NCBI GenBank assembly: GCA_030605695.1
Contig: JAUWHX010000075.1
Location: forward strand, 1 to 34,815
Reading direction: 5' to 3'
DNA: 34,815 nucleotides
Origin: a bacterium
GTDB lineage: Bacteria > Hydrothermota > UBA3073 > JACQXS01
Shown here: positions 1,576-31,056 of the stretch, piece after piece
How the letters are laid out: each line of letters starts with the position of its first letter
How positions within the stretch are numbered: the first letter of the stretch is position 1
Translations under genes and position numbers: made by a program
Notes under the pieces: generated by a model
Seen by the model: the letters and a program-made list of their open reading frames with translations, nothing else
What the model was told of the DNA's origin: nothing
Databases searched by the model: none

Positions 1576-2586
1576 TTACTTTAACTCTTTAGCTTTCTTT
1601 AAATCAGCATTTGCCTCTTCTTTCTTCCCAAGTTTCCAGTAAGCGTTAGCCCTTCCTTCATAGGCTTCACGAGTTTCTTCGTCAAGTTCTATAATTTTCG
1701 TGTAAATTTCCACTGCAAGGTCATACTTCTTGGTCAGAAGATAAACACCGGCTAAGTGGCTTAGAGCTTCTATATCATCCGGCTTAAGTTCAACTGCTTT
1801 TTTAAAGAGTGTTATTCCTTTATCATATTTTTCTTCCTTAATTAGGACAGCTCCCAAATTAAAGTAAGCATCCTCTAATGTGCTGTCACATTCAATCGCA
1901 TGCTCAAATGAGCATTCCGCCTCTTTATAATTCTCCTGAAGATAATAGCAAACACCAAGCCAATACAAGATATCAGCATTTTTCGGTTCTACATCCAATG
2001 CTTTCTTAAAATACTCTATGGCGAGGTCATATTCTTTGTTATTTTTATAATGAATTCCCAGATTCCTATATGCCTCTATGTTTTCAGGAGTAATTTCAAT
2101 TACACGCTTATAATATACAATTGCCGAGTCTTCTTTCTCCAGATTTGAATAGACAAGCGCCAGGTTCATATATGTTGACACAGAATCAGGCTCAAACTCA
2201 GATGCCTGAACAAACCTCTGCTTTGCACTTTCAAAATCTTTATCACGATTTGCATAAATACCGGCATTGTAATAAACAAGCCATAGAAATCCACTTTCTT
2301 TTGTAAAATCCTCTTTATCTGGAGCTGTTTTTTTTGCCTCGTCTATATATTTACAGGCTTCCTCATATTTCTCCTGATAAGCATAAGTTCTACCAAGCCA
2401 CAGCAATGCGTCTGCATCTTGCGGATTCATCTCAAGCTGAAGTTTAAACTGATCAATCGCCTTCTCATAATCTTCGCGCTGAATATAAACTTTACCAGCA
2501 GTCATATATTGAGATGCACACCCAGTTACTACTAAAAACCCGATAACCGATAACCGATAACCGATAACCGAAACACACTTTTTCAT
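1576..2586 (-). CDS. TPR repeat lipoprotein
   Basis: N-terminal hydrophobic segment with lipobox VVTGC, followed by many TPR units; SD-like ggaggag upstream. Confidence 0.9.
   Translation of the reverse strand: MKKCVSVIGYRLSVIGFLVVTGCASQYMTAGKVYIQREDYEKAIDQFKLQLEMNPQDADALLWLGRTYAYQEKYEEACKYIDEAKKTAPDKEDFTKESGFLWLVYYNAGIYANRDKDFESAKQRFVQASEFEPDSVSTYMNLALVYSNLEKEDSAIVYYKRVIEITPENIEAYRNLGIHYKNNKEYDLAIEYFKKALDVEPKNADILYWLGVCYYLQENYKEAECSFEHAIECDSTLEDAYFNLGAVLIKEEKYDKGITLFKKAVELKPDDIEALSHLAGVYLLTKKYDLAVEIYTKIIELDEETREAYEGRANAYWKLGKKEEANADLKKAKELK
2540..2570. repeat. Heptad array CCGATAA x4 plus CCG, inside lipoprotein signal peptide
   Basis: Four perfect tandem 7-mers read directly; encodes SVIGYRLSVIGF on the minus strand. 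Confidence 0.97.
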
Positions 2587-9768: not shown

Positions 9769-10590
9769 ATGAGAGTTTTAATAATAAGTATATCGGTTTT
9801 AATCTTTTTATCTGGAATATCATGCTATCATCACTATAATTCCTACGAATATTATGAATATTATAGTGAAGGTGTAGAGTATGGAGCTCAAGCGAAATTT
9901 GAAGAAGCACAAAGACAATTTGAAAAGGCTCTGGATGTCAGTCAACCTTGTCCTCCTACAACTCTTATAAAAAGACGCTTGAAAATCATTGATGATGTAA
10001 TTAAAGAAAAAATAACAAAGGAAGCAGGTGTTTATTTATTCAAAGCAATAGCTCGTATTAACAAGACGATGACACTTCCGGAGAACCTTGTTTCACATAA
10101 GTGGCGTAATGTTACCCACAGACGGAGTTATCTCAATCAATGGAGGTTAGATGATGCTATAAATGATTGCAAAAAAGTTATTACTCTTTACTCAAACTAT
10201 GGAGAAGCATATCGTATTCTTGGGATAGCTTATTACTACAAGGAGATGTATGATGAGAGTGTTACTGAGAGCAAGAAAGCATTGAAGTCTAATCCAAATG
10301 ATGCTCTCGTATACTACGATCTTGGTTTTACCTATCTTGCCAAAGAGATGCTGGACGAGGCATGTGGGGCATGTGAGAAAGCTCTTTATATCAATCCAAA
10401 ATTTGGTGAGGTGCATAAGCTTTTAGCTAAAATCTATTATTGCAAACTAGCATATGAATTAGCTATTGAACATTGTGAGAAATTAGCCAAACTTGGGTGT
10501 ATGGTTCCTTCCGAACTCTTACATGTTTTAAAACCATATGATTATATGGGTAAACTCAAAACTTTAAATTTTTATGATGTGGAAGATTGA
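9769..10590 (+). CDS. TPR repeat lipoprotein
   Basis: Start at ATG 9769 preceded by taggagaag SD; signal MRVLIISISVLIFLSGISC then TPR units (AYRILGIAYYYKEMYDESVTESKKALKSNPNDA). Confidence 0.82.
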   Translation: MRVLIISISVLIFLSGISCYHHYNSYEYYEYYSEGVEYGAQAKFEEAQRQFEKALDVSQPCPPTTLIKRRLKIIDDVIKEKITKEAGVYLFKAIARINKTMTLPENLVSHKWRNVTHRRSYLNQWRLDDAINDCKKVITLYSNYGEAYRILGIAYYYKEMYDESVTESKKALKSNPNDALVYYDLGFTYLAKEMLDEACGACEKALYINPKFGEVHKLLAKIYYCKLAYELAIEHCEKLAKLGCMVPSELLHVLKPYDYMGKLKTLNFYDVED

Positions 10591-13500
10591 GATTAAAAAA
10601 CGAGATAATACAGAAGGAGAGAACCTCAAAAAGGATATCCTTGACCTTGTTGGAACGAATCCCGATTTATCTGGACCTGGCGAGAGAGTTAATATTGAAC
10701 GATGTGAGGTAATTCAGGTTTATTATCTTTTTGGGCAAACACATGTAGGGGTTCAATATATTGAACCCCTACAATCGGAAATTCAAAGAATTGCGGAAGA
10801 GTTGCTTGCAGATAGAGTTTGGGAAACATACAATATAGTTAAGAGTTCAGAGTTGAAAGTTCAGGGTAACAATTCCCTAATTCCCAAATATGAGGTTGAA
10901 GTTGCTTATAATCCCGGAGTGATGGACCCGGTAAGTGCAAGCACCTTAAAAGGAATACGGGATTTGGGAATCAAAGGTGTGCAAGAAGTAAAGAGAGCAA
11001 AAAAGTATTTAATCTATGGCTCACTATCTCAAGAAGAGTTAGAACTCGTTTGTAATAAACTTTTGCTTAATCCAACAATTCAGCATCGAGTTCAGAGTTT
11101 AGAGTTTAGAGTTAAGAGTCCAGAGTTAAGAGTTCCAGTTTTTGATAAACCAAATTATATAGATATTCTGAATGCTCCTATGGAAGAACTTTTAGATATA
11201 AGTAAAAATTATGGTTTAAGTCTTAACTCCGAGGAATTTAAGAAGATACAGTTGCATTTTAGGAGTCTTGGACGAAATCCCACTGATATAGAGCTTGAGA
11301 CAATTGCTCAAACCTGGTCCGAGCATTGCGTGCATAAGACATTCAAGTCAAAAATTAAGTTTAATGGGAAAATCATAGAGCCACTTTTTACCACACTTAT
11401 GAGAGCCACAAAAGAACTCTCGCGAGATTTCTGTGTCTCTGTTTTCAAGGATAATGCAGGTATAATAAAATTTACTGACGAACACAACATTTGTTTCAAA
11501 GTAGAGACTCACAATCACCCATCAGCTATTGAGCCATACGGTGGTGCAGGAACAGGAACTGGCGGAGTAATAAGAGATATTTTGGGAACAGGACTTGGGG
11601 CAAAGCCAATATTAAATACTGATGTTTTCTGTTTTGGGCCACCAGATTATCCTGCGAATAAACTCCCGAAAGGAACACTTCATCCCAAACGAGTTATGAA
11701 AGGAGTTGTAGCTGGGGTAAGAGATTATGGAAACAAAATGGGCATCCCAACTTCAAATGGAGCAGTGATATTTGACGAGAGGTATTTAGGAAATCCAGTA
11801 GTTTACTGTGGAACCGTTGGCTTAATGCCTTGTGATAAATGCGAAAAGCAGATTGTGCCAGAAGATTTGATTGTTCTCTTAGGTGGGAGAACTGGTAGGG
11901 ACGGAATACATGGAGTAACCTTTGCATCCAGAGAACTGACCGAAAGCTCGGAAACCGCGTCATCACAGGCAGTTCAAATCGGAAACCCAATCACCGAAAA
12001 GAAACTTACAGATGTGCTTCTTAAGTTGAGAGATGCAGGCCTATATCGTGCTATTACAGATTGCGGTGGAGGAGGACTTTCATCAGCTGTGGGCGAACTT
12101 CCAAGACCTTATGGAGCAGAAGTTGATTTAGACCTTGTGCCACTTAAATATGAGGGGCTCTCTTATCGGGAAATATGGATATCCGAAGCTCAAGAGCGTA
12201 TGATAATTTTTGTGCCTCAAGAGAATATTAAAAAACTACTTGAGCTATGTGCTAATGAGGATGTAGAAGCAACTGTCATTGGCAAAATAAGGAATGATAA
12301 AAGACTCTTGCTCCAATATAATGACACTATAGTTGGCAATCTTGATATGGAATTTCTCCACGAGGAGGTTCCTTTATCAATAAGAACAGCCAAATGGAGA
12401 CCACCGAAACTCAAGGAATCCAGCGATTCACGATTCACGATTCACGATTCACAAGACTTAACTCCTTACTTATTGAAAATTCTTTCAAGTTTAAATGTTT
12501 GTAGTAAAGAATGGGTAGTCCGCCAATACGACCATGAAGTTCAAGGAGGCTCTGTAATTAAACCTCTTCACGGAGATGCAGCAGTTACAAAACCTTTGCT
12601 TGATTCTAATCGTGGGGTTGTTGTGGGATGTGGGATTAATCCAAAATATGGAGAGATTGACCCATATTGGATGGCAGCCGGGGCTGTTGATGAGGCGATA
12701 AGAAACATCGTTGCGGTTGGAGCTAACCCAGAGCATGTAGCACTTTTGGATAACTTCTCCTGGGGAAACCCGAATAAGCCAGAAATATTGGGGCAGCTTG
12801 TTCGAGCCGTAGAAGGATGCTACTTTGCATCTAAGACTTACAAAGCACCATTTATATCAGGCAAAGACTCATTAAATAATGAATACCGAATAGGAAACAA
12901 AACTATATCTATTCCCTCAACCTTGTTAATTTCTGCTATTGGAATAATAGAGGATGTAAACAAAGCAATCTCAATGGATTTGAAAGCTCCTGATAATTCA
13001 ATATATTTGCTTGGTCTGACATTTGATGAACTTGGAGGCTCACATTATTATGAACTCCATGGATGGAGTAGCAATAAAGTTCCTAAAATTAAACCACAAA
13101 TTAAGATGCTCAAAAAACTTCATCAAGCGATGCAAATTGGGCTTATTCGTGCCTGTCATGATTGCTCGGAAGGTGGAATTGGAGTAACTTGTTCTGAAAT
13201 GTGTTTCTCTGGAAATCTTGGAATGCAAATCCGGCTTGATAAAGTAAAATGCGGAAAGCTCATTACTCAGGATGATACGATTCTTTTCTCTGAGTCTAAC
13301 ACAAGATTCGTGGTTGAAATAGCAAAAGAACAGGAAGCTGAATTTGAAAAACTAATGTCTGGATGTGATTTTAGTAAAATTGGGATAACTACTCCACAGG
13401 ATTCTTCGAAAAAGTCTCCAGAGCTTTTAATATTTGGGCTAAATGGGAAGCAAATTGTTAAGGCAAAAACTGCCGAGCTTAAAGAAGCCTGGCAATCTAC

Positions 13501-14338
13501 ATTAGCTTACAGTCAACGGTCAACAGTCAACAGTCAACAGTCAACGGCTAAAACTAACTCACAACTCACAACTCACAACCCACAACTCGCAACTCGTGTC
13601 TTGATTTTGAGGACAGCTGGAACTAATTGTGATATGGAAACTAAGTTTGCCTTTGAACTTGTCGGCTCAAAAGTAGATTCAGTGCATATAAATCAACTTA
13701 TAAGTCGCAAAAAGAGTCTTCAAGACTATGATATTCTCGTTTTGCCTGGTGGTTTTACCTATGGAGATGACATTTCTGCTGGCAAAATCCTTGCAAATGA
13801 ACTAAAATTTGGACTGGGAGAAGAACTTGAGAAATTCATTGATTCAAAAAAGCTGATACTTGGAATTTGTAACGGCTTCCAGATTCTTGCTAAACTTGGA
13901 TTGTTACCCGGAGGCAAATTAGGAGAACAACTTGTAACACTTACTAATAATACCTCAGGTATATTTCAATGTGAGTGGGTGCAATTAGAAGCTCCTAATA
14001 CTAAATGTGTATTTACCAGAGGGATTGAAGAACTTGAGTTGCCAATTGCTCACGCAGAAGGAAGGTTTGTCGCTTCTCGTCCTGTAATTTCGGAACTTGA
14101 GCAAAATAATCAAATAGCTCTTCGGTATAAAGATTACAATCCAAATGGCTCAATGTCAGATATTGCAGGGATATGTGACCCTTCAGGCAGAATCTTTGGG
14201 CTTATGCCTCATCCGGAGAGATTCGTATCCAAAATTCAACATCCTCAATGGACTCGCGATGAAATAGAGCCCTTAGGACTATTGATATTTAAAAATGCAG
14301 TGGAATATGTATCTAATAAAAAAACGAGTAATTTATGA
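10574..14338 (+). CDS. purL: Phosphoribosylformylglycinamidine synthase, fused PurS-PurL-PurQ
   Basis: Two N-terminal PurS-like segments, PurL core (ETIAQTWSEHCVHKTF, FKVETHNHPSAIEPYGGAGTGTGGVIRD, ITDCGGGGLSSAVGEL), C-terminal glutamine amidotransferase (VLILRTAGTNCD, LGICNGFQIL, GLMPHPER). Confidence 0.97.
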   Translation: MMWKIEIKKRDNTEGENLKKDILDLVGTNPDLSGPGERVNIERCEVIQVYYLFGQTHVGVQYIEPLQSEIQRIAEELLADRVWETYNIVKSSELKVQGNNSLIPKYEVEVAYNPGVMDPVSASTLKGIRDLGIKGVQEVKRAKKYLIYGSLSQEELELVCNKLLLNPTIQHRVQSLEFRVKSPELRVPVFDKPNYIDILNAPMEELLDISKNYGLSLNSEEFKKIQLHFRSLGRNPTDIELETIAQTWSEHCVHKTFKSKIKFNGKIIEPLFTTLMRATKELSRDFCVSVFKDNAGIIKFTDEHNICFKVETHNHPSAIEPYGGAGTGTGGVIRDILGTGLGAKPILNTDVFCFGPPDYPANKLPKGTLHPKRVMKGVVAGVRDYGNKMGIPTSNGAVIFDERYLGNPVVYCGTVGLMPCDKCEKQIVPEDLIVLLGGRTGRDGIHGVTFASRELTESSETASSQAVQIGNPITEKKLTDVLLKLRDAGLYRAITDCGGGGLSSAVGELPRPYGAEVDLDLVPLKYEGLSYREIWISEAQERMIIFVPQENIKKLLELCANEDVEATVIGKIRNDKRLLLQYNDTIVGNLDMEFLHEEVPLSIRTAKWRPPKLKESSDSRFTIHDSQDLTPYLLKILSSLNVCSKEWVVRQYDHEVQGGSVIKPLHGDAAVTKPLLDSNRGVVVGCGINPKYGEIDPYWMAAGAVDEAIRNIVAVGANPEHVALLDNFSWGNPNKPEILGQLVRAVEGCYFASKTYKAPFISGKDSLNNEYRIGNKTISIPSTLLISAIGIIEDVNKAISMDLKAPDNSIYLLGLTFDELGGSHYYELHGWSSNKVPKIKPQIKMLKKLHQAMQIGLIRACHDCSEGGIGVTCSEMCFSGNLGMQIRLDKVKCGKLITQDDTILFSESNTRFVVEIAKEQEAEFEKLMSGCDFSKIGITTPQDSSKKSPELLIFGLNGKQIVKAKTAELKEAWQSTLAYSQRSTVNSQQSTAKTNSQLTTHNPQLATRVLILRTAGTNCDMETKFAFELVGSKVDSVHINQLISRKKSLQDYDILVLPGGFTYGDDISAGKILANELKFGLGEELEKFIDSKKLILGICNGFQILAKLGLLPGGKLGEQLVTLTNNTSGIFQCEWVQLEAPNTKCVFTRGIEELELPIAHAEGRFVASRPVISELEQNNQIALRYKDYNPNGSMSDIAGICDPSGRIFGLMPHPERFVSKIQHPQWTRDEIEPLGLLIFKNAVEYVSNKKTSNL
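10744..10773. repeat. Perfect 30-bp palindrome TGTAGGGGTTCAATATATTGAACCCCTACA inside purL
   Basis: Every base pairs with its partner about the centre at 10758/10759; encodes HVGVQYIEPLQ. Confidence 0.97.
10837..10864 (+). repeat. Heptad array AGTTNAR x4 in purL
   Basis: agttaag agttcag agttgaa agttcag. Confidence 0.88.
11088..11136 (+). repeat. Heptad array GAGTTNA x7 in purL
   Basis: gagttca gagttta gagttta gagttaa gagtcca gagttaa gagttcc. Confidence 0.95.
12425..12452 (+). repeat. Heptad array GATTCAC x4 in purL
   Basis: Four perfect tandem copies. Confidence 0.97.
13510..13593 (+). repeat. Composite heptad array (CAGTCAA family then TCACAAC family), 12 units, in purL
   Basis: cagtcaa cggtcaa cagtcaa cagtcaa cagtcaa cggctaa aactaac tcacaac tcacaac tcacaac ccacaac tcgcaac. 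Confidence 0.97.
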
Positions 14339-15920: not shown

Positions 15921-18587
15921 TTATTTATCAGAAATTTCTTCTTGAATTAATTTGATATGTGCCTCAAGTTTAAGCAATTTTTGCTTATACTCTTTTGCTT
16001 TTTCGTGAGCCTTTTTTACTACTTCTGGTGGAGCTTTCTTCAGGAAATCAGAGGAAGCAAGGCGAAGCTCTGTATTTTTGACAAGCTGTCCGAGTTCTGA
16101 ATGTTCCAGTTCGAGTTTCTTTAATTCTTGCCCTAAATCTACAAGTCCTGCCAGAGGAATAAATATATCTACTCCCTTGGCAAGAGCGTGTTTGCACCCT
16201 TTGGGTATTGACTGTATAAATTCAATAGAATCTATTTTCCCCAAAGATTTAATGTATAGCTCATTCTCTTTAATAATATCTGGATAAGAAGGTTCACATT
16301 TCAAAAGGAGTTTAATGGGTTTTGTTTTTGGAATACGGAAGTCGGTTCTTGTATTCCTGGAAGCCATTATAATATTTTTGATAAGTTCAAATTCCTGTTC
16401 TGCAGGTAAATCTAAATCAGCTGGGTCCGGCAGGGGCCACTCGCTTATCATAATTGAGTTGTGAGTTGCAAGTTGTGAGTTATGAGTTGAGAGCTTTTGC
16501 CATATTTCTTCTGTAATAAACGGGATAAAAGGATGAAGGAGCCGTAATGTATTATCTAATATGCGTATTGCATTTTTTTTGTCCCCTTTTATTTTGAGAG
16601 TCTCAAGATACCAATCACAGAACTCGTGCCAGAAGAAATCATAAATCCGCATAGCAGGTTCTTGTAGTTTAAACTTGTCAAGTAAAGAAGTTACATCTTT
16701 TATAAGTTTGTGTTGTTTGGATAATATCCAGCGGTCAGGAAGTGTTAACCCTTTTCGGGATTCGGGGTTCGGGTTGGTGTTTGGCAATGAATCAAGAAGT
16801 CTATAAGCATTCCATATTTTATTTGTAAAGTCTCGTCCAAATTCAAATGTATTGGGCTGAATATGAGGGTCCTGTCCTTCACCAGCAGTAGTTATTAACG
16901 AAAATCTCAGGGCATCTGTGCCATACTCTCGTATAATATCTCTTGGGTCTATTCCATTTCCCAGGGATTTCGACATTCTTATTCCTTTTACATCTCTGAC
17001 GGTTCCGTGAAGATATACATCCGTAAATGGAGGTTTTCCCATAAACTCGTATCCAGCCATAATCATTCGGGCTACCCAGAAGAAAATTATCTCCGGTGCT
17101 GTACTGAGGAGTGCAGTTGGATAAAAATATTGGAGTTCTGGAGTTTGTGTGGGCCACCCAAAAGTAGAAAAGGGCCAGAGCCACGACGAAAACCAGGTAT
17201 CAAGGACATCTGTGTCCTGAACCAATTTCTTTGATTTGCAGTAAGGACATTGCTTAGGCTTCGTCTTAGAGACAATAATACCGTTTTGCATTTTGCATTT
17301 TGCATTTTGCATTTCTCTGCAATGCCAAACCGGCAACTGATGTCCCCACCATATCTGTCTTGATATACACCAATCTCTGATATTATACATCCAGTTTAAA
17401 TAAACACCCTTCCACCGAGGTGGATAAAATTTAATTTCTCCATCTTCTACTGCCCGGATTGCAGGTTTTGCAAGCTCCTTCATTCTCACAAACCATTGTT
17501 TTGAAAGAGTTGGCTCAATTATAGTTTTACATCTGTAACAATGTCCGATTGCACAATTATAGGGTTCGGTTCGCTCAAGAAGTCCAAGTTCTTCAAGGTC
17601 AGCAATAACCTTTTTTCTGGCTTCAAATCTTTCAAGCCCTTTATACCCACCACCATTCTCATTGATTACTCCTGTTTTATCCAGTATGAGTATTTTGGGC
17701 AATTTATGCTCCTGAGCAATTTCAAAATCAACAGGGTCATGCGCTGGAGTTATTTTAACTATCCCTGTTCCAAATTCAGGGTCGACTTTCTCATCAGCTA
17801 TTACAGGGATTTCACGATTCATAAGAGGAAGTAGAACAGTCCTCCCAATAAACTTAGCATTCTTTTTATCTTTTGGACTCACCGCACAAGCAGTATCACC
17901 GAGCATTGTCTCGGGTCTGGTTGTTGCCACAATTATATACTCTTGTGTTCTTGTGCTCTTGTGCTCTTGCGACTTAAGAGGGTATTTAATATAATAGAGC
18001 TTACCCTTTCTTTCTTTATGTTCAACTTCTTCATCAGCGACTGCAGTTTTACATCTTGGACACCAGTTTACAATGTAATCTCCCTGATAAATCAGTCCTT
18101 TTTCATAAAGCCGTACAAAAGCTTCACGCACAGCCTCGCTGAGACCGGAGTCTAAAGTAAATCTTGTTCTGTCCCAATCGCAACTGCAACCAAGTTTTTT
18201 GAGTTGCTCCAATATAGTGTGTTTTTTTTCATTTACCCATTCCCATACGAGGTTCAGGAATTTATCTTTGCCTATTTTTTCTATGGGCTCATAATGTAGC
18301 ACTTCTCTTTCAACTATTACTTGAGTGGCGATTCCTGCATGGTCAACTCCGGGAAGCCACTCAGCCATAAAACCTTGCATTCTGCGATATCGTATAAATA
18401 TATCCTGAATTGTGTTGTTAAGAGCATGCCCAAGATGTAAAACATCAGTTACATTTGGAGGAGGAATAACAATTGTGAATGGTTTTAACTTAGAGTCCGG
18501 AGTTGCCTTGAAATAACCATTCTCGAGCCAGACTTTGTACCACTTTTCCTCTACGGGGATTGGGTCATATTTTTTAGGTATATCCAT
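15921..18587 (-). CDS. valS: Valyl-tRNA synthetase
   Basis: PPPNVTDVLHLGHALNNTIQD (HIGH region), GVDHAGIATQ, TTRPETMLGDTA editing domain, RMSKSLGNGIDP (KMSKS region), C-terminal coiled coil. Confidence 0.97.
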   Translation of the reverse strand: MDIPKKYDPIPVEEKWYKVWLENGYFKATPDSKLKPFTIVIPPPNVTDVLHLGHALNNTIQDIFIRYRRMQGFMAEWLPGVDHAGIATQVIVEREVLHYEPIEKIGKDKFLNLVWEWVNEKKHTILEQLKKLGCSCDWDRTRFTLDSGLSEAVREAFVRLYEKGLIYQGDYIVNWCPRCKTAVADEEVEHKERKGKLYYIKYPLKSQEHKSTRTQEYIIVATTRPETMLGDTACAVSPKDKKNAKFIGRTVLLPLMNREIPVIADEKVDPEFGTGIVKITPAHDPVDFEIAQEHKLPKILILDKTGVINENGGGYKGLERFEARKKVIADLEELGLLERTEPYNCAIGHCYRCKTIIEPTLSKQWFVRMKELAKPAIRAVEDGEIKFYPPRWKGVYLNWMYNIRDWCISRQIWWGHQLPVWHCREMQNAKCKMQNGIIVSKTKPKQCPYCKSKKLVQDTDVLDTWFSSWLWPFSTFGWPTQTPELQYFYPTALLSTAPEIIFFWVARMIMAGYEFMGKPPFTDVYLHGTVRDVKGIRMSKSLGNGIDPRDIIREYGTDALRFSLITTAGEGQDPHIQPNTFEFGRDFTNKIWNAYRLLDSLPNTNPNPESRKGLTLPDRWILSKQHKLIKDVTSLLDKFKLQEPAMRIYDFFWHEFCDWYLETLKIKGDKKNAIRILDNTLRLLHPFIPFITEEIWQKLSTHNSQLATHNSIMISEWPLPDPADLDLPAEQEFELIKNIIMASRNTRTDFRIPKTKPIKLLLKCEPSYPDIIKENELYIKSLGKIDSIEFIQSIPKGCKHALAKGVDIFIPLAGLVDLGQELKKLELEHSELGQLVKNTELRLASSDFLKKAPPEVVKKAHEKAKEYKQKLLKLEAHIKLIQEEISDK
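16458..16492 (-). repeat. Heptad array TCACAAC family x5 in valS (GTTGTGA on + strand)
   Basis: gttgtga gttgcaa gttgtga gttatga gttgaga. Confidence 0.93.
16756..16783 (-). repeat. Heptad array CGGGRTT x3-4 in valS
   Basis: cgggatt cggggtt cgggttg gtgtttg. Confidence 0.75.
17284..17311 (-). repeat. Heptad array TTTTGCA x4 in valS (TGCAAAA on coding strand)
   Basis: Four perfect tandem copies; encodes MQNAKCKMQN. Confidence 0.97.
17941..17972 (-). repeat. Octad array TCTTGTGC x4 in valS
   Basis: tcttgtgt tcttgtgc tcttgtgc tcttgcga. Confidence 0.92.
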
Positions 18588-19863: not shown

Positions 19864-21141
19864 ATGAAAGAGAAAAACGGTAATGTATTAATAATAGGAG
19901 CTGGAGTTGCAGGAATGGAGGCAAGTCTATTACTCGCTAATTCAGATAAAAAAGTCTATCTGGTTGAGCGTACATCCTACACCGGTGGCAATGTAATAAA
20001 GTTTGAAAAAGTTTTCTCTAATATGGAATGTGCTACTTGTATGTTAGCACCAAAGCAACAAGAACTTCTGGCAAACGAGAATATTGAACTTTTGACTCTT
20101 GCTGAGGTTATTGATGTTAAAGGTTCCGCCGGAGATTTTACTGTAAAAGTTAGGAAAAAAGCTAGGTATGTAGATTTGCAGAATTGTATTGGCTGTAGTG
20201 CTTGCTTTGAGCCCTGTCCGGTTAGCGTGAAAAATGAATTTGAAGAGGGACTTTCGGAGAGAAAGGCAATATATGTTCCCTGTCCCGGTGCACTTCCAAA
20301 TGTTCCTGCAATTGATACAGAAAATTGTGTCAGATTTAAAGGCAAGGATTGTCAACTGTGCAAAGAAGCTTGTATGTTTGAAGCAATTGATTTTGACCAG
20401 AAAGATGAGGAACTTAAGCTGAAAGTCGGAGCAATAATAGTAGCCACAGGATTCAGCACATTTGACTCCAAAAAGACCCCTCACCTCGGATACGGGAAAC
20501 TTGCTGATGTATATACTGCCTTTGAGTTTGAGAGAATGTTTGCTTCTAATGGACCTACCGAAGGAGAGATTAAGCTCCGAAATGGTGAAACTCCGAAATC
20601 TGCTGTTATCATCCATTGCGTAGGGAGAGAAGAAAAAGGATATTGTTCTGGAGTGTGCTGTATGTATTCCCTTAAATTCACTCACTACTTGAAGGAAAAG
20701 CTTCCAGAAATCAAGATAGCCGAGTTTTATTCTGATTTATGTATTCCGGGTAAGTCCTATCAAAAGTTTTATGAGGAGACCAAAACTATGGGACCCGAGA
20801 TTATTAGATTCAATGAGATTGAAGTCGTCAACGCTAATGGACAACTAACAGTAAACTACAAACCCGACACCCTAAACCCTAAACCCCAAACCCTAAATAC
20901 TGATATGGTTATTCTTGCTCCAGCAATTGAACCGGACGGTAATGCGAATAAACTTGCAGAGGTAATTGGCATTCCCCAAGATGAATATGGGTTCTTTGCT
21001 GAAGGGCATCCAGAGATTGACTCTGTAGCTACGCAGAAAGAAGGAATATTTATTGCAGGGTGTGTGCAAGGACCAAAAGACATTCAAGACTCGGTAGCCC
21101 AATCAGAAGCAGCAGTGGGAAAAATACTTTCATCAAGATAA
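19864..21141 (+). CDS. HdrA-like flavoprotein, short form with internal ferredoxin insertion
   Basis: FAD motif VLIIGAGVAGMEASLLLA, HdrA CATCMLAPKQQE, RKKARYVDLQNCIGCSACFEPCPVSV insertion, HCVGREEKGYCSGVCCMYSLKF. Confidence 0.94.
   Translation: MKEKNGNVLIIGAGVAGMEASLLLANSDKKVYLVERTSYTGGNVIKFEKVFSNMECATCMLAPKQQELLANENIELLTLAEVIDVKGSAGDFTVKVRKKARYVDLQNCIGCSACFEPCPVSVKNEFEEGLSERKAIYVPCPGALPNVPAIDTENCVRFKGKDCQLCKEACMFEAIDFDQKDEELKLKVGAIIVATGFSTFDSKKTPHLGYGKLADVYTAFEFERMFASNGPTEGEIKLRNGETPKSAVIIHCVGREEKGYCSGVCCMYSLKFTHYLKEKLPEIKIAEFYSDLCIPGKSYQKFYEETKTMGPEIIRFNEIEVVNANGQLTVNYKPDTLNPKPQTLNTDMVILAPAIEPDGNANKLAEVIGIPQDEYGFFAEGHPEIDSVATQKEGIFIAGCVQGPKDIQDSVAQSEAAVGKILSSR
20862..20896 (+). repeat. Heptad array ACCCTAA x4-5 in hdrA copy 1
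   Basis: acccgac accctaa accctaa accccaa accctaa. Confidence 0.95.
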
Positions 21142-29862: not shown

Positions 29863-31056
29863 ATGACGATTATTGAAAGAATTTTATCTAATAAAGTCGG
29901 ACGAGAAGTTCATATTGGAGAGAGAATTTGGGTCCCGCTTGATTTAGTAACAATGCGGGATTTTGGTGGTCCTAATGCAATTTTAGAATATAAGGAAAAT
30001 TTTGGTGATGCTCCTTTATTTGACCCAGCCAAAGTGGCAATAACTTTTGATTTACATATACCTCCGAGGAATGAAAAGGTAGCACGCAATCAACAAATTT
30101 GCCGTGAATTTGCAAAAGCTACCGGAGCAAGATTGTTTGATATAAACCAAGGGATTGGACAACATATTTTATGGGAACACGGAATGGTGCAAGAAGGAGA
30201 TGCTATAATTGGGACTGACTCACATATGAACCTTCTGGGAGCTTTTGGAGCATTTGCAAGTGGAGTTGGAACTACTGATATTGTAGCTGGAATGAGATAT
30301 GGCAAGTTCTGGTACCGTGTCCCAAAAACTATAAAAATTAAACTTCGTGGGAAATCAAAGAAGTTTGTTGGTGCAAAAGATGTAATACTCTGGGTGCTGA
30401 AAAACTTAGGCACTGATGGAGCAATAAATAGAGCAGTTGAGTTTAGCGGAGATATAATTGAGCCAATAGGAGTTACAGGACGAATTACCTTAGCATCAAT
30501 GGTAACAGAGCTTTCAGGTGAAATTGGTTTTTTTCAGTCCACAGTCCACAGTCTACAGTCCACAGTAGAGTATGAAAAGGTATATGAATTTGATGTTTCG
30601 GACATTTCACCACAGATTGCTTGTCCGCATTCACCAGACAATGTAAAAGATGTTAAAGATATTGCAGGCACTCCTATAGACCAGGTATTTATAGGGAGTT
30701 GCACCAATGGGAGGTATGAGGATTTAGAGCAAGCCGCTAAGATTCTTAAGGGCAGAAAAATAAAGACGAGATTAATAATAGTTCCTGCAAGCACAAAAGT
30801 TGCACAAGAAGCTTTGAAACACGGACTTTACGAGATATTTTTTGATGCTGGGGCAGTTGTAGTAAATCCTGGTTGTTCCTTATGTACCACTGGACATCCG
30901 GGAATACTTGCTCCGGGCGAGCGTATGGTTTCCACTTCAAATCGCAATTTTATTGGGAAACTTGGCAAGGGAGGAGAAATATGGCTTGCATCACCACAAA
31001 CAGCGGCTGCATCAGCGATTAGAGGAGAAATCACAGAACCAGGAACATTATGTTAA
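29863..31056 (+). CDS. leuC: 3-isopropylmalate dehydratase/homoaconitase family large subunit
   Basis: FDLHIPPRNEKVARNQQICREFA, GTDSHMNLLGAFGAFASGVGTTDI, FIGSCTNGRYEDL, NPGCSLCTTGHPGILAPGERMVSTSNRNF. Confidence 0.93.
   Translation: MTIIERILSNKVGREVHIGERIWVPLDLVTMRDFGGPNAILEYKENFGDAPLFDPAKVAITFDLHIPPRNEKVARNQQICREFAKATGARLFDINQGIGQHILWEHGMVQEGDAIIGTDSHMNLLGAFGAFASGVGTTDIVAGMRYGKFWYRVPKTIKIKLRGKSKKFVGAKDVILWVLKNLGTDGAINRAVEFSGDIIEPIGVTGRITLASMVTELSGEIGFFQSTVHSLQSTVEYEKVYEFDVSDISPQIACPHSPDNVKDVKDIAGTPIDQVFIGSCTNGRYEDLEQAAKILKGRKIKTRLIIVPASTKVAQEALKHGLYEIFFDAGAVVVNPGCSLCTTGHPGILAPGERMVSTSNRNFIGKLGKGGEIWLASPQTAAASAIRGEITEPGTLC
30535..30569 (+). repeat. Heptad array CAGTCCA x4-5 in leuC
   Basis: cagtcca cagtcca cagtcta cagtcca cagtaga. 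Confidence 0.95.

What the first reader, a model, noticed from the sequence alone, without database searches (positions are those of the whole stretch)
16458..17972. Four different repeat arrays inside valS
Seen: TCACAAC family (16458-16492), CGGGRTT (16756-16783), TTTTGCA x4 (17284-17311, encoding MQNAKCKMQN) and octad TCTTGTGC x4 (17941-17972, encoding SQEHKSTRTQ). They fall at EEIWQK/ISEWPLP, before LPDRWIL, after the WHCRE catalytic segment, and just before the editing-domain IIVATTRPETM, all plausible loops. The signature motifs remain intact.
Basis: partly seen in the sequence, partly recalled or inferred. Interest (0 to 1): 0.75.

Follow-up and report, generated by a model that had tools for sequence, protein, structure and literature searches.

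The report
Seven-base repeat arrays inside bacterial genes
In an uncultured bacterium (candidate phylum WOR-3), short runs of a repeated seven- or eight-base word sit, in frame, in flexible loops of the essential enzyme valyl-tRNA synthetase and of many other proteins; related species carry different words in the same loops, so some process keeps building repeats inside working genes.

Summary
valS (15921-18587, minus strand, 888 aa) carries four tandem arrays, and they are the four strongest in the gene. Two (TGCAAAA x4.4, octad GCACAAGA x3-4) far exceed chance on their own. The other two are degenerate and rest on comparison with relatives. All four fall in coil in an AlphaFold2 model; the ValRS fold is intact.

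The octad and the TCACAAC array are present in the two closest species and absent from a third of the genus, which lacks 24 and 21 bp (three units each). The TGCAAAA site is older. It interrupts a CxxC...CxxC knuckle, and the knuckle's second cysteine is encoded inside the array. In other species of the class the same loops carry different heptads; purL behaves likewise.

Genome-wide, period 7 dominates and period 6 is absent. 83 of 86 strict heptad arrays lie inside ORFs, mostly encoding hydrophilic loops or, at N-termini, hydrophobic leaders. Unit words recur beyond chance.

Best reading: recurrent in-frame heptad/octad expansions, filtered by frame and fold. This is a new variant of a known kind, unusual in living mainly in coding sequence. 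The generating mechanism is open.

The parts
15921..18587 (-). valS, valine--tRNA ligase, 888 aa, host of the four arrays
   Evidence: NCBIfam TIGR00422/NF004349 above cut-off; phmmer and Foldseek best hit 1gax
17940..17972 (-). Array A: octad, coding-strand unit GCACAAGA, encodes SQEHKSTRTQ at the entry to the editing domain
   Evidence: TRF; +8 aa / 24 bp = 3 octads relative to G002 and G003
17284..17314 (-). Array B: heptad, coding-strand unit TGCAAAA x4.4, encodes MQNAKCKMQN between the first and third Cys of the CxxC...CxxC knuckle; C430 lies in the array
16754..16783 (-). Array C: decaying heptad, coding-strand CCCGAAT/CCCGAAC, encodes NPNPESRK in the loop before LPDRWIL
16455..16493 (-). 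Array D: heptad family, coding-strand AACTCAC/AACTCAT/AACTTGC, encodes STHNSQLATHNS in the loop after EEIWQK
   Evidence: G002 lacks 21 bp = 3 heptads (gap; +7 aa measured on the G001 copy)
10837..10864 (+). Degenerate heptad array in purL (GAGTTCA type); other species carry AAAAATC, CAGAAGA or AAATGCT here
11088..11135 (+). Heptad array in purL (GAGTTTA), encodes RVQSLEFRVKSPELRV; CAGAAGT in G003
12424..12452 (+). Heptad array in purL (CGATTCA x4); CGAATCC in G001 and CAACTCA in G002 at the same site
13509..13545 (+). Heptad array (ACAGTCA) in the linker of the PurL-PurQ fusion
13556..13596 (+). Heptad array (AACTCAC) in the same PurL-PurQ linker
2540..2571 (-). Heptad array (TTATCGG on the coding strand) encoding SVIGYRLSVIG, the hydrophobic core of a lipoprotein-type signal peptide (MKKCVSVIGYRLSVIGFLVVTGCASQ)
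20860..20897 (+). Heptad array (AAACCCT) inside the 425-aa ORF 19864-21141
30535..30566 (+). Heptad array (CAGTCCA) inside the 397-aa ORF 29863-31056 (aconitase/LeuC-like by eye); absent from G001

Best explanation
The four arrays are a local sample of a genome-wide load of heptad and octad tandem arrays. A mutational process specific to units of 7-8 nt repeatedly adds about three units (+21 or +24 bp) next to a pre-existing unit. Because three units of 7 or 8 nt are a multiple of three, these additions keep the reading frame (gains of three or six units shown for arrays A and D and for G003 at site B). Selection keeps those that land in loops, domain linkers or leader peptides, on the strand that reads without stops and with the right polarity (shown as a pattern, inferred as cause). 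The arrays then decay by point mutation and the same tolerant loops are refilled, so the site is old but the word is young (shown by comparison). The generating step is inferred: most likely slippage or template switching that re-anneals one 7-8 nt unit, favouring certain words. At site B one array codon (C430) has apparently become a ligand of the Cys4 knuckle (inferred).
For: Period spectrum in 574 kb of G000: 44 arrays at period 7 and 12 at period 8, but 0 at 6, 1 at 5 and 2 at 9, although 6 and 9 would be frame-neutral; relaxed scan 62 and 19 against 0 in simulations. Net gains against array-free relatives: A +8 aa, D +7 aa, G003 at B +14 aa over G000, i.e. 3 or 6 units. Strict arrays inside ORFs of at least 100 aa: 83 of 86 with coverage 0.90-0.91. 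Of ten array-bearing ORFs tested, nine hit Pfam domains, with arrays in loops or at domain junctions, e.g. CCA-adding enzyme, a class II tRNA synthetase with editing domain, T9SS sorting-tail junctions. Interior arrays encode hydrophilic peptides (mean GRAVY -1.19 against +0.79 for the opposite strand, n=115), while N-terminal ones in G000/G001/G003 are hydrophobic in 5 of 6. Same loops, other words: valS sites A-D and purL sites in G003, G005, G008, G009, G014, G015; three species of one genus carry three words at purL 12424. Cys: C-x7-C in G000, G001, G002, G006, G008, G014 against CxxC in distant ValRS.
Against: Random slippage does not predict a shared vocabulary: 44 arrays fall in 28 word classes where 42.3 are expected (P<0.001), TGCAAAA five times; 8 G000 arrays share a class with G003 against 2.1 expected. 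Neutral addition should fill intergenic DNA first, yet arrays are about as common per base in genes as between them. Intermediates of +7 or +14 would break an essential gene, so a single multi-unit event is needed. No enzyme has been identified: reverse transcriptases of the RVT_1 family were not found in the 16 class genomes, and mutS1 is present in G000. Many other arrays show no clean empty site in the relatives sampled.
Confidence: 0.6

Rival explanations
1. Copy-and-paste: discrete elements of about 32 bp (four and a half heptads) are copied between loci, as a selfish element or through template switching on a donor array.
For: Word classes recur within and between genomes. TGCATTTx3 occurs in 13 of 147 WOR-3 genomes, ten of them in this class, against 0 for a composition-matched control word and 0 for the reversed pattern. 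Total length is near 32 bp in most classes, and start or end phase is non-uniform in several. In G003, AACCGAT arrays share unit order beyond chance (P 0.01) and several loci carry near-identical copies of AAAGTTCAAATGTCAAAGCTCAAAGTTCAAA.
Against: For most classes, unit order is no more alike between loci than after shuffling units. Flanks are unrelated, net gains are 21-24 bp rather than 32, and no RVT_1 reverse transcriptase was found. Phase bias may partly reflect extension into A-runs, and part of the ~32 bp length follows from frame selection (one old unit plus three).
Confidence: 0.22
2. Adaptive linkers: the arrays are kept because the added disordered peptide improves the protein.
For: Hydrophilic strand used in 86-89% of interior arrays and hydrophobic strand in leaders; arrays at domain junctions, in the PurL-PurQ linker and at T9SS-tail junctions; conserved Cys in site B.
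Against: Peptide sequence and presence change between species of one genus; relatives without arrays keep intact genes; purifying selection against the wrong strand explains polarity equally well.
Confidence: 0.1
3. The arrays reflect repeated amino-acid use in low-complexity loops rather than repetition at the DNA level.
For: Permuting synonymous codons while keeping the protein still leaves some high scores (maximum 26, 95th percentile 20) because the peptide itself is periodic.
Against: Units of 7 and 8 nt are out of step with codons, so the same word is read in three frames (MQNAKCKMQN); the same word occurs in several genes in different frames, and heptad arrays also occur in intergenic DNA.
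Confidence: 0.03

Closest known systems
Heptameric simple sequence repeats of Xanthomonas and Nostoc (GGGAATC, GGGGA(C/T)T; PMC4692102, which also cites an earlier report that heptamers are over-represented in many bacteria)
   Same: Period 7, about four units, dispersed over the genome.
   Different: Those are G-rich, one word family per species and over-represented in non-coding DNA. Here there are many words, not G-quadruplex-like, and nearly all lie in coding sequence.
TAACTGA repeats of Beggiatoaceae, cyanobacteria and Bacteroidetes (PMC4679880)
   Same: Period 7, a shared word across species, reverse orientation readable as LSVISYQ inside some ORFs.
   Different: Mostly just upstream of start codons with one dominant word; in-gene copies mainly at protein ends. 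Here they lie in the interior of essential enzymes.
Rickettsia palindromic elements inserted in frame in genes (review PMC10969869)
   Same: In-frame insertions in unrelated metabolic genes, tolerated by the fold.
   Different: RPEs are ~150-bp palindromes of defined families; these are ~30-bp tandem arrays without inverted ends.
Tandem repeats of Borg elements (PMC9879509)
   Same: Recent, fast-evolving arrays in ORFs that make disordered segments; recurrent hot spots.
   Different: Borg in-ORF units are always divisible by three and very rarely shared; here units are 7 or 8 nt and words recur.
Constant-size, variable-sequence tandem repeats of Bacillus and others (PMC8161180)
   Same: Repeat size conserved while sequence varies.
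   Different: Sizes 20-21 or 52 nt; the large families are not in protein-coding genes.

Membership tests
Heptameric/octameric simple sequence repeats | Tandem units of 7-8 nt beyond chance | tested here: met
Heptameric/octameric simple sequence repeats | Preference for about four units | tested here: met
   Copy histogram peaks at 4-5; partly expected from frame selection
Heptameric repeats as described in Xanthomonas, Nostoc and Beggiatoaceae | Mainly non-coding location | tested here: not met
   83 of 86 strict and 101 of 116 relaxed heptad arrays in ORFs
Phase-variation (contingency) repeats | Copy-number change switches the frame of a surface or variable gene | tested here: inconclusive
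   Host genes are largely housekeeping enzymes and the frame is kept in the orthologs examined; no population data
Rickettsia palindromic elements / MITEs | Palindrome or terminal inverted repeats | tested here: not met
   The arrays are direct repeats; listed copies show no inverted ends
Borg-type in-ORF tandem repeats | Unit length divisible by three | tested here: not met
   Units 7 and 8 nt
Retroelement-derived insertions | Reverse transcriptase in the genome | tested here: not met
   PF00078 gave 0 of 16 class genomes while control genomes ring; the MAGs are incomplete
Valyl-tRNA synthetase (host protein) | Fold and family score | tested here: met

The most novel reading that the evidence does not exclude
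This bacterial class has a dedicated or strongly biased DNA process that writes ~30-bp heptad arrays, from a shared vocabulary of words, preferentially into coding (perhaps transcribed) DNA in steps of three units, so that reading frames survive. The arrays have supplied linkers, signal peptides and even a probable metal-binding cysteine in essential enzymes.
Probability: 0.2. Interest if true: 0.78.

Novelty: new variant of a known kind. Interest (0 to 1): 0.52.

Why it matters
Short repeats in bacterial genes are usually explained as contingency switches or as rare accidents. Here they are numerous in core enzymes, with a unit size that would wreck the frame unless added three at a time, and the same loops are refilled with different words in sister species. 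This gives a natural record of where essential enzymes tolerate insertions and a clear case for asking what makes 7- and 8-nt units special. It also warns that MAG proteins containing peptides such as NSQLTTHNSQL or MQNAKCKMQN are real, not assembly errors.

Tried and rejected
Assembly artefact: rejected, because the arrays are shorter than a read and several are identical in the separately assembled relative G001. Chance: rejected for A and B by shuffling and for the genome-wide set by simulation. Loss of mismatch repair: mutS1 found above cut-off in G000 and in 12 of 16 class genomes. Reverse-transcriptase origin: no RVT_1 hit in the class. Wholesale copying of arrays: unit-order test negative for most words; low P values only for AACCGAT in G003 (0.01) and TGCAAAA in G000 (0.025, not corrected for about 25 tests), and suggestive for AAAGTTC in G003. 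Shared vocabulary with other phyla: TGCATTTx3 absent from 36 genomes and CACAACTx3 from the other-phylum genomes sampled. The coding fraction leaned on a simple ORF caller, so I repeated it at several ORF thresholds and checked ten ORFs against Pfam. Some G003 and G001 stretches were chosen because they matched the window, so their array densities may be inflated; G000 contigs were taken in numerical order plus the window.

Full report
What is there. The window is contig C58 of a 2.0-Mb draft genome of 93 contigs; its nearest named relative is a candidate division WOR-3 MAG with 95% ValRS identity. valS lies at 15921-18587 on the minus strand (888 aa). Tandem Repeats Finder gives four arrays in it, at 16455-16493, 16754-16773, 17284-17314 and 17940-17969. 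A separate scan of the coding strand returns the same four as its best hits; two exceed every one of 400 codon shuffles and two are degenerate. Below they are called D, C, B and A respectively.

Structure. AlphaFold2 with 24 relatives gives mean pLDDT 86.8. All four arrays are in coil between regular elements and carry the lowest confidence of their regions. The model matches T. thermophilus ValRS 1gax (TM 0.84/0.87). In the alignment to 1gax the Thermus enzyme is shorter at A and D.

Gain and loss. In an alignment of 30 ValRS of the phylum, A and D are present in G000 and G001 and absent from G002 of the same genus. The gaps are 8 aa (24 bp, three octads) and 7 aa (21 bp, three heptads). B is older: a segment of the same length, more or less degenerate, is found in G002, G006, G008 and, in another family, G014. 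C varies throughout. Other class members carry other words in these loops: GAAATTC x4, ACCGGAT x8, or AAAAATC x4 plus CGATTCA x4 at A; AGAAGAC or AAAAATC at B; AAAACTC or CCCCAAC at C; AAATCCG or AAATCCC at D. purL behaves the same at several sites; at 12424, three species of one genus have CGATTCA, CGAATCC and CAACTCA. Two heptad arrays make up much of the linker of the PurL-PurQ fusion.

The knuckle at site B. Distant ValRS have CxxC...CxxC here. In the G000 lineage, and in G002, G006, G008 and G014, the first pair is C-x7-C with the second Cys inside the array or its degenerate counterpart (AKCKM, EKCKM, EECKK). In G003 and G009 the array also lies between the first two cysteines, with the second just after it; in G005 and G015 the insertion follows the second cysteine. 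The second cysteine is thus never lost. That it binds zinc is inferred from the motif, not tested.

Genome-wide. In 574 kb of G000 the strict count by period is 44 at 7, 12 at 8, 10 at 14 (partly doubled heptads), 0 at 6, 1 at 5 and 2 at 9; 25 at period 21 include ordinary protein repeats. G001 and G003 have similar densities of period 7. G002 and G007 have far fewer strict arrays, and G024, a distant member of the phylum, has none in 200 kb. For G000, G001 and G003 together, 83 of 86 strict heptad arrays lie in ORFs of at least 100 aa, which cover 0.90-0.91 of the sequence; two lie fully outside. A relaxed scan gives 101 of 116 coding in G000 plus G003. Octad arrays in G000 differ: most are intergenic and long. 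Of ten array-bearing ORFs tested, nine have Pfam domains, including a CCA-adding enzyme, a class II tRNA synthetase with editing domain, an amino-acid kinase and three proteins with T9SS sorting tails. Arrays sit repeatedly at the junction before the sorting tail, with different words.

Selection signature. Interior arrays use the strand that encodes hydrophilic peptides (mean GRAVY -1.19 against +0.79 for the other strand; sense lower in 86%). In G000, G001 and G003, five of six arrays within 25 codons of an ORF start encode hydrophobic leaders, such as SVIGYRLSVIG in a lipoprotein-type signal peptide. This fits filtering by fold and secretion; it does not require that the arrays be useful.

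Vocabulary. Words are not random draws from coding sequence: 28 classes among 44 arrays where 42.3 are expected, and 8 G000 arrays share a class with G003 against 2.1 expected. The pattern TGCATTTx3 is found in 13 of 147 genomes of the phylum, ten of them among the 16 of this class; a composition-matched control word is found in none. It is absent from 36 genomes of other phyla. Arrays of several words share end phase and are about 32 bp long. A unit-order test shows no general copying between loci; the clearest exception is AACCGAT in G003 (P 0.01), with several near-identical AAAGTTC copies as a suggestive second case.

Mechanism. Shown: period 7-8, net gains of three or six units, loop location, strand choice, site persistence with word turnover. 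Inferred: a slippage or template-switch process in which one 7-8 nt unit re-anneals and several units are added at once, because +7 or +14 would break an essential gene. Unexplained: why words recur, and why coding DNA is not avoided. In Xanthomonas, Nostoc and Beggiatoaceae such heptads are mainly non-coding (PMC4692102, PMC4679880). Borg in-ORF repeats always have unit lengths divisible by three (PMC9879509), and RPEs are palindromes (PMC10969869). mutS1 is present, and RVT_1 reverse transcriptase was not found in the class.

Verdict. Real, correctly interpreted at the protein level, and part of a wider pattern. It is a new variant of a known kind.

Noticed in passing
window 10744-10773: A perfect 30-bp palindrome (TGTAGGGGTTCAATATATTGAACCCCTACA) inside purL, in frame (VGVQYIEPLQ), with matching copies elsewhere in G001; most relatives lack the segment. 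An RPE-like in-gene palindromic insertion.
   Followed up: partly
L005 valS site C, L006 valS site D, L011 valS site B: GC-rich inverted-repeat inserts sit in the same valS loops as the heptad arrays in other species, so those loops accept several kinds of short insert.
   Followed up: partly
window 13486-13600: The linker of the PurL-PurQ fusion is largely two heptad arrays; in G005 and G008 stop codons separate the two parts.
   Followed up: partly
L038:6648-12739, L040:13255-15007, L047:1011-3007: Long octad arrays (GAGTTTAA/GGGTTTAA/GTTCAAGA family, up to about 240 bp), mostly intergenic, unlike the short in-gene arrays.
   Followed up: no
L036:11991-12051 and L037:19470-19586: Long pure arrays of period 4 (CAGA) and period 5 (TCAAG), rare exceptions in this genome.
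   Followed up: no
window 10574-14338 against G001: purL stretches are 97-100% identical to G001 apart from the 12424 array, while several neighbouring stretches are 90-95%, suggesting recent recombination or strong conservation there.
   Followed up: no
L041 (G000 contig C11): The 2661-bp contig reads as N throughout the scanned length (masked).
   Followed up: no
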